From Serratia entomophila (lineage in GTDB: Bacteria; Pseudomonadota; Gammaproteobacteria; Enterobacterales; Enterobacteriaceae), in contig NZ_CP082787.1 in the NCBI RefSeq assembly GCF_021462285.1, positions 2,666,001-2,730,000 of the forward strand: a DNA stretch of 64,000 bases. Reading direction: 5' to 3'. Numbering within the stretch: the stretch's first letter is position 1; every line of letters starts with the position of its first letter. A program made the position numbers and the translations under genes. Of the stretch, positions 1 to 41,004 are shown one piece after another. The notes under the pieces were generated by a model. That model was given only the letters and a program-made list of their open reading frames with translations. It did not search any database and was not told where the DNA came from.

Positions 1-95
1 CGCCGCTGCATGAGCTGACCAAGCGACTGATCGCCAGCCACTTTGGCGAAGCGTTGACCGCCGACGCCTGGCGACGCGACGGCGGAAGGTTCTGA
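1..95 (+). CDS. 3' end of an unidentified protein (partial)
   Basis: The window opens inside a plus-strand reading frame (codons begin at base 3) that ends at TGA 93-95. About 30 residues are visible, basic and ending in a Gly-Gly-Arg-Phe tail. An intrinsic terminator follows within 35 bases, which supports this being the true 3' end of a gene. I do not recognise the protein from this tail and assign no function. Confidence 0.5.
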   Translation, partial: PLHELTKRLIASHFGEALTADAWRRDGGRF

Positions 96-145: not shown

Positions 146-206
146 ATCGCGGCGCGTTAGCTAAAAAACGCAGATACAAATTACATTTTTGCTATATATC
201 ATTATA

Positions 207-230
207 TTTTATTCCTTTTGGTTATTGATT
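207..230 (+). promoter_or_regulatory. possible CysB/Cbl-type activator site upstream of yciW
   Basis: The AT-rich block contains ATTCCTTTTGGTTAT, which resembles the TTATTCC-N-TT..GGTTAT sites found upstream of sulfur-starvation genes in enterobacteria. It lies about 90 bases before a small cysteine-containing ORF and 280 bases before yciW, which is a known CysB-regulon gene in E. coli. The assignment is by eye and is inference. Confidence 0.45.
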
Positions 231-316
231 AGCACGTAACATTATTTTATCTCGCCAATACGATCGGTGAGGATATCCACTACGTTGAGCTTGTTAAACG
301 ACAGGATATCGCACTG

Positions 317-418
317 ATGAACAGCCCCCGCAATCGCCAATTCGCGCAATTTTTGCTCGCCTTAGCCGCCGGTTTCTCTGTTTATGGCCATGCCCTGTGC
401 TGCGATACGCACCCTTGA
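317..418 (+). CDS. small ORF with tandem cysteine codons, possible leader peptide of yciW
   Basis: This is a 33-codon ORF with ATG at 317, TGA at 416-418 and an AGGA-like ribosome site about 9 bases upstream. The middle is hydrophobic (FLLALAAGF), so the product could also resemble a tiny exported peptide. Near the end are two adjacent TGC cysteine codons followed by Asp-Thr-His-Pro. It sits between a CysB-like box and yciW, and a GC-rich potential stem (about 462-484, GCCGC...GCGGC) lies between its stop and yciW. A cysteine-rich short ORF ahead of a sulfur-regulated gene is the layout expected of an attenuating leader. There is no poly-T tract, so any control would be translational or Rho-dependent. 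Translation is unproven. Confidence 0.45.
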   Translation: MNSPRNRQFAQFLLALAAGFSVYGHALCCDTHP

Positions 419-509
419 CCCTGTCATCTTGCCGGCCCGTCCGCGCCTTTCTTCCGGTCGCCGCTGCTACTGCCGCGGCGGCTGTTGCCCATGATTAAGG
501 ATTGACCCT

Positions 510-1694
510 ATGGAACTACTTCGTCGACAACATAACGCCCAGTGGTATCACGAAACGCAAAGCAGCGTGCGCGGCGACGCGCCGCTGGAGCCACAGGCGG
601 CCACCATCCGCGACCGTTTTCTGTTGGGGCTGGGCGCCTTTGCCGACGAAGCGCTGAACACTGCGCTGACCGCCCGCGCCGGGGTTTTCAGCGCCTCGCT
701 CGCCGGTTATCACGCGCTGTTCCCGGATCAGGTCGCTTTGTCGCGGTTCGTTACGCTGTCACCTTATGATCGCCTCAGCACCGCACTGACCGTCGCGCAG
801 GTGACCGGCGTGCAGTCTCTTTGTAGCCACTATGCCGCCCGCCTCGCCCCGCTGCATAGCCCTGACGCCTCCAGAGAAAGCAATATCCGCCTCGCCCAAA
901 TCACCCAATACGCTCGCCAGCTTGCCAGCCAGCCCACGCTGATCTGCACGCGGGCGCTGCAACAGCTCAGCGACGTCGGCCTGAGCCCGGCGGACATCGT
1001 CACCTTCTCGCAGATTATCGGTTTTGTCAGCTATCAGGCGCGGGTGGTGGCCGGCGTAGCCGCTCTGGCTGGGCGGCCGACCGGCGTCGTGCCCGGCTTC
1101 CCGAATATCGAAGACGCTGAAGGCGTCGCTTTTACCGATCAAGAGCTGGCGTGGCTGTCACGGCTGCCGGAGATTAACCAGGATGACGCCAGCGCCGAAC
1201 AGCTTGACGTGCTGGATCAGAGCCACCCGCAGGCCCGGGTGGAACCCTACTACCTGCTGCTGGCGCATGATGCGGCTGCGCTGCGCGAGCGCAATGGCGT
1301 ATTCAACAGCATTAACGCCGACGGCTATGGGCTTTCCGCCCGGTTGAAAGCGCTGGCGACGCTGGCGGTTTCACGCATCAACGGCAGCCGTTACTGCGCC
1401 GCCACGGTAGCGCAGGACATTCAGAATGCGGGGTTGACGAACGCGCTGTTCACCAGCGTTGCGCAAGGGGTGGAAAAAGCGGATAACCCGGTCAGCCAGG
1501 CGGTGATCCGCGTGGCCGCCGACCTGACGCGCGCACCGGAGAAATTCACCCCGCAGAGCGTGCGGCCGCTGTTTAACAGCGGGCTGAATCAGGCGCAGGC
1601 GCTGGATGTGATCTTGACCGGCGCGCTTTATGCCTGGGAAAACCGGCTGCGGCAAACGCTGGGCGACGCCCCTTTGGCGGCCGAAGCCGGCTGA
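510..1694 (+). CDS. yciW: YciW, AhpD/carboxymuconolactone-decarboxylase-like protein
   Basis: The 394-residue protein has two halves of the CMD/AhpD helical fold. The first runs to about residue 190 and includes the YciW-type block SPYDRLSTALTVAQVTG. The second spans about residues 280-390, with the motif GSRYC and a terminal LDVILTGALYAWENRL helix. The usual AhpD CxxC-plus-His peroxidase motif is not intact: only one Cys (in RYCAATVAQ) sits where the pair would be, so peroxidase activity is doubtful. E. coli yciW lies next to rnb, is under CysB control and affects cysteine/methionine metabolism; here yciW and rnb are separated by about 7.5 kb of accessory genes. An AAGGA ribosome site precedes the ATG. 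The name rests on motif similarity and synteny, not on a search. Confidence 0.75.
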   Translation: MELLRRQHNAQWYHETQSSVRGDAPLEPQAATIRDRFLLGLGAFADEALNTALTARAGVFSASLAGYHALFPDQVALSRFVTLSPYDRLSTALTVAQVTGVQSLCSHYAARLAPLHSPDASRESNIRLAQITQYARQLASQPTLICTRALQQLSDVGLSPADIVTFSQIIGFVSYQARVVAGVAALAGRPTGVVPGFPNIEDAEGVAFTDQELAWLSRLPEINQDDASAEQLDVLDQSHPQARVEPYYLLLAHDAAALRERNGVFNSINADGYGLSARLKALATLAVSRINGSRYCAATVAQDIQNAGLTNALFTSVAQGVEKADNPVSQAVIRVAADLTRAPEKFTPQSVRPLFNSGLNQAQALDVILTGALYAWENRLRQTLGDAPLAAEAG

Positions 1695-2169: not shown

Positions 2170-2718
2170 ATGTCCGAACAAGAACTCAGGTCCAGCAACA
2201 GTATTGTTAACGTGATCGTGGTTATCGATACCGATGCTCTGGTGGAGGCCTATAACGGCAAAAACCCCAGTCAGGATCCCAATAGCCCTACCGGCATCAA
2301 TCACAGTTACGCCTATATGGTGGTAACCTCGCAGCAGGTCATCGGCGGCTCCGGCACCGCCGATCTGAACTTTAAGGCCAACGTCGGCGACGTTATCCGC
2401 TGGACCGGTACCTCCGAATCCAACAACTTCGACGCCAGCGTATTGATTTACGGCCTGCCCCAGTTCGGCGGCGGCACCCAGGTATTTTCCAATCCGACGT
2501 TCAAGATGTATACGCGCAGCTCAATGTTGCCGGCGCAAAATACCATTTTCCCGGTAACCTACAGCAACCAGACCTATTGGTTTATTCAGGCCGACATCTC
2601 CAACACCGGCACGGAGAATTATTGCATTCAGTTTGGCCTTTATTATCGGCCGACCGGAGGCGATCAACAGCTGCTGGGTTATTTTTATTGGGACCCGGCC
2701 ATTACTATCAGCAATTGA
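2170..2718 (+). CDS. AidA/PixA family inclusion-body protein
   Basis: The 182-residue protein has no signal peptide or membrane segment and is rich in Ser, Thr, Asn and aromatic residues. It starts with a polar Ser-rich stretch followed by IVNVIVVIDTDAL and carries NHSYAYMV and a late Tyr/Trp-rich region, the layout of the AidA/PixA family. Known members include PixA, which forms crystalline inclusions in Xenorhabdus, and AidA of Burkholderia and Ralstonia, which is induced in stationary phase or by quorum sensing; the molecular function is unclear. A TGAGGTAG ribosome site precedes the ATG and a strong terminator follows. The gene stands alone and is absent from the E. coli yciW-rnb interval. 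Confidence 0.8.
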   Translation: MSEQELRSSNSIVNVIVVIDTDALVEAYNGKNPSQDPNSPTGINHSYAYMVVTSQQVIGGSGTADLNFKANVGDVIRWTGTSESNNFDASVLIYGLPQFGGGTQVFSNPTFKMYTRSSMLPAQNTIFPVTYSNQTYWFIQADISNTGTENYCIQFGLYYRPTGGDQQLLGYFYWDPAITISN

Positions 2719-40849: not shown

Positions 40850-40912
40850 ATGAACCAGCAAACAACTTCTCTTCTTCATTGGTGGCGTACCTCCCTTTCG
40901 CGGGCGGTGTAA
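40850..40912 (+). CDS. trpL: trp operon leader peptide
   Basis: The 20-codon leader encodes MNQQTTSLLHWWRTSLSRAV with two adjacent Trp codons at positions 11-12. Ribosome stalling at these codons when charged tRNA-Trp is scarce favours the antiterminator and lets RNA polymerase enter trpE. It starts at ATG 40850 with GAGAG upstream. It is six residues longer than the 14-residue E. coli leader. The attenuator hairpin begins 38 bases after the stop. Confidence 0.95.
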   Translation: MNQQTTSLLHWWRTSLSRAV

Positions 40913-40950
40913 TCGCGCATACCTGTCATCCGACAATGCAGATTTCCTGA

Positions 40951-40974
40951 GCCCGCCCTGATGCGGGCTTTTTT
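40951..40974 (+). terminator. trp attenuator
   Basis: GCCCGC / GCGGGC with a 6-base loop and six T lies between trpL and trpE. It is the 3:4 terminator of the attenuation switch. Confidence 0.95.
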
Positions 40975-41004
40975 ATGGACAAAATTTAACTGGAACCACC
41001 GATG

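What the first reader, a model, noticed from the sequence alone, without database searches (positions are those of the whole stretch)
207..510. Cysteine-codon leader ORF behind a CysB-like box, ahead of yciW
A 33-codon ORF (317-418) with adjacent TGC TGC codons near its end lies between a CysB-type ATTCCTTTTGGTTAT site and yciW, a CysB-regulated gene in E. coli. Tandem cysteine codons before a sulfur-regulated gene are what a cysteine-sensing attenuator needs, as polycysteine leader ORFs do in mycobacteria. I know of no described leader peptide for yciW. The ORF's hydrophobic middle could also make it an exported micropeptide.
Basis: partly seen in the sequence, partly recalled or inferred. 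Interest (0 to 1): 0.72.

Follow-up and report, generated by a model that had tools for sequence, protein, structure and literature searches.

The report
Conserved cysteine-containing leader ORF before yciW
A short peptide-coding stretch in the leader RNA of a sulfur-controlled gene is real and conserved in Serratia and some related bacteria; it probably tunes that gene to cysteine supply, but how it does so is not settled.

Summary
Of 28 Serratia loci, 26 keep a 33-codon frame; the other two are reduced genomes. On the 26, pN/pS is 0.25 (about 0.1 in codons 10-30), against 1.1-1.2 in the other frames. A conserved 5' hairpin (263-318) buries its Shine-Dalgarno and AUG. The same hairpin, with compensatory changes, heads yciW in an unnamed genus g40 (probably Yersinia), where 18 of 20 leaders differ in sequence but end [C/R]-C-C-[P/L]-stop, 11-13 nt before yciW.

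The cysteine-attenuator reading is only partly supported. The CC pair alone is near chance in the window (9% of shuffles). It is CC in 22 of the 26, and one Cys in the other four and in four g78 genomes. The Cys sites vary more than the peptide around them. No conserved terminator/antiterminator or Shine-Dalgarno switch was found.

Best reading: a cis-acting regulatory uORF whose Cys-containing end couples yciW to cysteine, perhaps like TnaC, MdtU or CruR. Cys-codon leaders are known elsewhere (Actinobacteria, Rhodobacterales cysS); my searches of open papers found none described for yciW. No expression data were available.

The parts
3..95 (+). 3' end of sapF, the upstream gene
   Evidence: NCBIfam NF011692 (PRK15112.1), E 2.8e-11 on the fragment, below the whole-protein cut-off
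193..252 (+). Conserved promoter region with the CysB-like site (ATTCCTTTTGGTTAT at 211-225)
   Evidence: Strongly conserved block in 29 aligned loci; CysB role by analogy with E. coli yciW (review passage); promoter-like match at 180-208. Not an experimental site.
263..318 (+). 5' hairpin (arms 263-269+272-278 with 304-310+312-318) that buries the leader's Shine-Dalgarno and AUG
   Evidence: 92.1% of cells paired in 43 distinct sequences, slid controls at most 43%; compensatory changes between Serratia and g40; window fold -20.8 kcal/mol, z -2.0; z -2.5 to -4.4 in four relatives
303..306 (+). Shine-Dalgarno AGGA of the leader ORF
   Evidence: Sequence and spacing; alignment A1
317..418 (+). 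Leader ORF, 33 codons
   Evidence: pN/pS 0.25; 33-codon frame in 26 of 28 Serratia loci
398..403 (+). Tandem Cys codons TGC TGC (codons 28, 29)
419..509 (+). 91-nt spacer between leader stop and yciW start (35 C, 24 G)
   Evidence: spacer length in 30 sequences is 77-102 and not in multiples of three
456..483 (+). GC-rich hairpin B upstream of the yciW Shine-Dalgarno
   Evidence: 88.1% of cells paired in 30 sequences, but slid controls reach 63 and 77% and one has a higher covariation score, so support is weak
497..501 (+). yciW Shine-Dalgarno AAGGA
   Evidence: Sequence; invariant in A2
510..1694 (+). yciW (CMD / peroxidase-related protein)
   Evidence: PF02627, TIGR01926

Best explanation
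It is a regulatory upstream ORF that acts in cis on yciW. Shown by comparison: the ORF is kept as coding sequence, its start lies in a conserved hairpin, and in Serratia, g78 and 18 of 20 g40 loci one or more Cys codons sit at or near its end. Inferred: the transcript starts near 258. Ribosomes that open the hairpin translate the leader. The Cys codons and the conserved nascent peptide set how long the ribosome stays at the leader's end, and that decides whether RNA polymerase or ribosomes go on into yciW. With no intrinsic terminator seen and more C than G in the spacer, the likeliest device is control of Rho or of ribosome hand-over by a ribosome held at the leader's end, as in TnaC (recalled), MdtU or CruR. 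Because YciW appears to lower cell cysteine in E. coli, I lean to yciW being made when cysteine is ample; the direction is a guess.
For: Purifying selection on the peptide and frame upkeep. Start site: in g17 and g32 (L046, L047, L049) there is no leader and yciW can read from the leader's own hairpin and AUG. Hairpin with compensatory change, found strongly in 16 of 392 family genomes, all at yciW. Cys at or near the end in Serratia and g78 and in 18 of 20 g40 leaders; a Cys-rich ORF in g87. YciW deletion raises cysteine output and cysteine sensitivity in E. coli (review passage PMC10821248). MdtU is a 34-codon uORF ending 106 nt upstream of mdtJ with a conserved C-terminus (PMC7815308 passages), close to the layout here.
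Against: No expression, ribosome-profiling or Rho data. The Cys pair is not the most conserved part of the Serratia peptide, and the number of Cys per leader is not above shuffles in most leaders tested. The last Cys codon ends 106 nt before yciW in the window and 17 nt before it in most g40 loci, so one device may not fit both. Burial of the g40 yciW Shine-Dalgarno is no stronger than in shuffled leaders (mean access 0.18 against 0.14). L131 and L132 in g40 lack the Cys run. The hairpin was found strongly in six genera only, though the scan used strict filters, and E. coli yciW shows no such leader.
Confidence: 0.45

Rival explanations
1. Classical cysteine attenuation: shortage of Cys-tRNA stalls the ribosome at the TGC codons, an alternative RNA fold forms, and yciW is turned up.
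For: Cys codons at or near the leader end in Serratia, g78 and 18 of 20 g40 loci; same direction as CysB control. g40 keeps the last Cys codons (TGC 18 of 18; TGT or TGC 18 of 18) while the rest drifts. In L132 the yciW Shine-Dalgarno is predicted paired with the leader around its Cys codons.
Against: No conserved terminator/antiterminator; almost no predicted change of Shine-Dalgarno access in the window; CC not invariant; strong selection on the rest of the Serratia peptide.
Confidence: 0.2
2. Leader as a plain translation helper: terminating ribosomes reinitiate at yciW, with no sensing.
For: In g40 the leader stops 11 nt before yciW in 17 of 20 and 13 nt in one; leader genes are over-represented at 10-11 bp in Actinobacteria, with a peak also in Proteobacteria, which its authors tie to reinitiation (PMC4833913 abstract). 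In 10 of 30 Serratia-group sequences a ribosome at the stop codon is predicted to free the yciW Shine-Dalgarno more (by 0.1 or more) than one at the Cys codons.
Against: The Serratia-group spacer is 77-102 nt, long for simple hand-over; does not explain Cys upkeep or peptide conservation.
Confidence: 0.2
3. A functional micropeptide (membrane or signal-like) co-expressed with yciW.
For: Peptide-level selection in Serratia; basic N-terminus and hydrophobic middle (sequence).
Against: In g40 the same uORF encodes different, weakly constrained peptides (pN/pS 0.70); no family hit; absent in g17 and g32.
Confidence: 0.1

Closest known systems
Cys-codon leader peptides of actinobacterial cys operons (Seliverstov 2005, PMC1262725; polycysteine uORFs, Canestrari 2020)
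   Same: Short ORF with Cys codons near its stop ahead of a sulfur gene; no conserved terminator hairpin in Mycobacterium (PMC1262725 passages).
   Different: Here the start has a Shine-Dalgarno inside a hairpin (not leaderless), the Serratia peptide is conserved, and the gene is yciW in Enterobacterales. Canestrari 2020 itself was not held; known here through citing papers and recall.
uORFC-8-2 motif upstream of cysS, Rhodobacterales (PMC8632094)
   Same: uORF with two tandem Cys codons, UGC or UGU (passages).
   Different: That motif ends in a likely intrinsic terminator and precedes a tRNA synthetase gene; no conserved terminator here.
MdtU / mdtJI leader, E. coli (PMC7815308)
   Same: 34-codon uORF, stop 106 nt upstream of the gene, C-terminus conserved across genera (passages).
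   Different: Spermidine response, Rho and uORF translation were tested there; nothing of the kind is tested here.
CruR / DUF2946 copper uORF (PMC9426467)
   Same: Regulatory uORF with conserved cysteines acting through translation arrest and Rho (abstract and passages).
   Different: CruR is 145 residues with CXXC and RAPP motifs; neither motif is in the window's peptide.

Membership tests
Ribosome-mediated amino-acid attenuator (trp/his type) | Short ORF with its own Shine-Dalgarno, kept as coding | tested here: met
   Selection and frame upkeep; translation itself not measured
Ribosome-mediated amino-acid attenuator (trp/his type) | Conserved run of regulatory codons | tested here: inconclusive
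   CC in 22 of 26 full-length Serratia leaders; single Cys in four of four g78 genomes with yciW; two or three Cys at the end in 18 of 20 g40
Ribosome-mediated amino-acid attenuator (trp/his type) | Conserved mutually exclusive terminator and antiterminator | tested here: not met
   No terminator-like site before yciW in the window; in relatives 11 of 30 and 3 of 20 sequences hold candidates at differing places, mostly 5-6 bp stems, one (L050) of 11 bp
Mycobacterial polycysteine uORF | Leaderless start | tested here: not met
   Start lies behind a Shine-Dalgarno within a conserved upstream hairpin; transcript start not mapped
Mycobacterial polycysteine uORF | Stall frees a masked downstream Shine-Dalgarno | tested here: not met
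   Predicted access in the window 0.49 free, 0.49 at stop, 0.41 at Cys; prediction only
Nascent-peptide / Rho leader (TnaC, MdtU, CruR type) | Conserved C-terminal peptide sequence | tested here: inconclusive
   Serratia codons 10-30 pS 0.41, pN 0.043, but the last three codons vary freely; in g40 only the end is constrained
Nascent-peptide / Rho leader (TnaC, MdtU, CruR type) | Ligand-dependent ribosome arrest and Rho-dependent termination | not testable with these tools
   C-rich, G-poor g40 leader (C/G 1.92) is only suggestive

The most novel reading that the evidence does not exclude
A cysteine-sufficiency gate that opposes CysB. CysB switches yciW transcription on when cysteine is short, but the leader lets yciW, a cysteine-lowering protein, be made only when cysteine is ample, sensed either as free reading of the Cys codons or as cysteine acting on the nascent peptide (a TnaC for cysteine), with a second input at the 5' hairpin, which is kept even where the leader is missing.
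Probability: 0.2. Interest if true: 0.75.

Novelty: new variant of a known kind. Interest (0 to 1): 0.5.

Why it matters
It would be a cysteine-linked leader in Enterobacterales, where sulfur control is usually described at the level of CysB (recalled). It bears on the unknown role of YciW, and it is easy to test with a reporter in E. coli K-12. The same locus shows a leader that is a conserved peptide in one genus (Serratia) and little more than a Cys run in another (g40), and genera without the leader that still keep its start hairpin.

Tried and rejected
Chance: rejected for the ORF, not for the CC pair alone. Intrinsic attenuator: no conserved terminator. Shine-Dalgarno switch: almost absent in the window and absent in the S. 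marcescens-type loci, seen in 10 of 30 Serratia-group sequences, reversed in L013; in g40 the burial is no more than composition gives. Hairpin B: slid controls come too close to call it proven. Rfam: no match to 180-560 up to E 1. Hairpin elsewhere in the genomes: no second strong copy in 392 genomes under strict filters; next matches at E 0.001 or worse. Micro-ORF 267-317 in the hairpin: no Shine-Dalgarno seen, not followed.

Literature: ten paper searches gave no leader peptide for yciW. One search listed 30 of 39 papers with the word yciW, and of these I looked into one (passages); the library lacks most subscription journals. Passages of PMC10117436 and PMC2965389 held nothing on this leader.

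Not done: no structure prediction. Leader ORFs in L074-L113 were judged by eye on the printed sequence, and the output was cut, so part of L057-L058 was not seen.

Full report
What is there. The ORF at 317-418 reads MNSPRNRQFAQFLLALAAGFSVYGHALCCDTHP, with TGC TGC at 398-403, between the end of sapF and yciW. YciW falls in the CMD / peroxidase-related families.

Is the ORF real? YciW was found in 28 of 30 genus genomes, one of them broken (L043). I aligned 29 upstream regions (L016-L043 and L013). Of the 28 genus loci, 26 (L016-L041) hold a 33-codon leader; L042, from a 3.6-Mb genome, holds a 29-codon relict without the late Cys codons, and L043, from a 2.5-Mb genome, is degenerate. L013 holds the 31-codon g78 form. 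On the 26 (23 distinct), pS is 0.36 and pN 0.089, ratio 0.25; for codons 10-30 pS is 0.41 and pN 0.043; codons 31-33 vary freely; the other two frames give 1.06 and 1.17. The spacer to yciW in the 30 sequences examined ranges from 77 to 102 nt and is not in multiples of three.

The cysteines. Codons 28-29 read CC in 22 of the 26, YC in 3 and CG in 1. In g78, 4 of 7 genomes have yciW; their leaders end LCGHD, LCSHD, LCSHD and LCGND, one Cys each (L073 has the same printed sequence as L013, and only its first part was translated directly). In the 26, V22, Y23, H25, A26, L27 and D30 never change while 28 and 29 do. A Cys run of two or more occurs in 9% of shuffles of the window's ORF and 14% for L030. 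So in Serratia the pair is part of a conserved peptide and not a specially protected codon run.

Other genera. Genus g40 (25 genomes, 22 with yciW, 20 loci examined) is unnamed. I take it to be Yersinia from its number and size of genomes; this was not tested. In 18 of 20 loci a 42-46-codon ORF starts at the hairpin's AUG and ends [C/R]CC[P/L]-stop, 11 nt (17 loci) or 13 nt (one) before yciW. Its lengths differ by whole codons; frame 0 is open in 18 of 18, and frames +1 and +2 in 0 and 3 of 18. Its pN/pS is 0.70 overall and 0.33 in the last eight codons; the third-last codon is TGC in 18 of 18 and the next TGT in 8 and TGC in 10. In five g40 leaders tested, a Cys run as long as the observed one has a shuffle frequency of 0.0005 to 0.17, while the number of Cys is not unusual (0.12 to 0.32). 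The other two loci, L131 and L132, have a Cys-containing ORF that overlaps yciW by 61 nt; L132, the one tested, is not unusual in Cys (0.55) or run (0.99). Genus g87 (one genome) has a 56-codon ORF with six Cys (shuffle frequency 0.05) ending next to the yciW Shine-Dalgarno. Genera g17 and g32 have the hairpin but no leader: yciW can read from the leader's AUG, though L046 also has an in-frame ATG six codons on. I read this as loss of the leader; the direction of change was not tested on a tree. E. coli has no such leader; in the other sampled genera I saw none by eye.

The 5' hairpin. On 43 distinct sequences out of 57 loci, 92.1% of cells in a 15-pair helix are paired, against 19-43% in slid controls. 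Pairs 16-61 and 17-60 switch between U-A and C-G and between G-C and A-U from Serratia to g40. Of 500 shuffles, 2 reach the percentage paired, 9 the covariation score, 15 the cells with double changes, 45 the pairs with double changes, and all 500 the number of pair types. RNAalifold finds the same helix on its own. Single folds of five sequences have z -2.0 to -4.4. A covariance model finds 16 of 392 family genomes strongly (E 7e-13 or better), all at yciW in g1, g17, g32, g40, g78 and g87; the next matches are at E 0.001 or worse; strict filters may lose weak ones. The leader's Shine-Dalgarno and AUG lie in this stem.

Downstream RNA. Hairpin B (456-483) is paired in 88.1% of cells, but slid controls reach 63% and 77% and one has a higher covariation score, because of GCC/GGC triplets, so support is weak. 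No terminator-like site lies between leader and yciW in the window; relatives show scattered candidates in 11 of 30 and 3 of 20 sequences, mostly 5-6 bp stems, one of 11 bp in L050. Predicted access to the yciW Shine-Dalgarno in the window is 0.49 free, 0.49 with a ribosome at the stop and 0.41 at the first Cys codon; a rise of 0.1 or more from Cys to stop is seen in 10 of 30 sequences, none of the S. marcescens type, and a fall of 0.11 in L013. In g40 the Shine-Dalgarno is buried (0.00-0.34 in 18), but no more than with shuffled leaders (mean 0.18 against 0.14).

Mechanism. A review reports a CysB-binding motif upstream of yciW and that its loss raises cysteine output and cysteine sensitivity (PMC10821248 passages; Kawano 2015 not read). 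MdtU (34 codons, stop 106 nt upstream, conserved C-terminus; PMC7815308 passages) and CruR (PMC9426467 abstract and passages) show how translation at a uORF's end can govern Rho. The Serratia layout resembles MdtU. The g40 layout resembles a reinitiation leader (10-11 bp peak; PMC4833913 abstract). I commit to a cis-acting regulatory uORF linked to cysteine at 0.45; the direction and the device (Rho, reinitiation or attenuation) are inferred.

Known or new. Cys-codon leaders are described for actinobacterial cys operons (PMC1262725 passages), for mycobacteria (Canestrari 2020, cited in PMC13236596 and PMC9094748, passages) and for Rhodobacterales cysS (PMC8632094 passages). My ten searches found no leader described for yciW. 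Hence a new variant of a known kind.

Noticed in passing
window 40874-40976 (+): Rfam tryptophan operon leader RF00513, 73.3 bits.
   Followed up: no
window 2170-2718 (+): PixA-type inclusion body protein, PF12306, E 1.5e-53.
   Followed up: no
window 267-317 (+): A 16-codon GTG micro-ORF inside the 5' hairpin whose TGA overlaps the leader ATG (TGATG); similar in g32, g78 and g87 loci, no Shine-Dalgarno seen.
   Followed up: partly
L053-L066, within about 60 nt before yciW: In several loci of g25, g35 and g115 (Rahnella-like is my guess) an inverted repeat (GGGTC...GACCC, GAGTC...GACTC in some) encloses the yciW Shine-Dalgarno, with matching changes on both sides; read by eye.
   Followed up: no
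L074-L113, after the yciW promoter: A common CCAGGATA and, in many, a GATCCGG...CCGGGTC-like inverted repeat in the yciW leader of loci without the leader ORF; read by eye.
   Followed up: no
L131, L132, between leader Cys codons and yciW: A terminator-like stem followed by a T run (GCCGTTTTT), unlike the other g40 loci (L131 only).
   Followed up: partly
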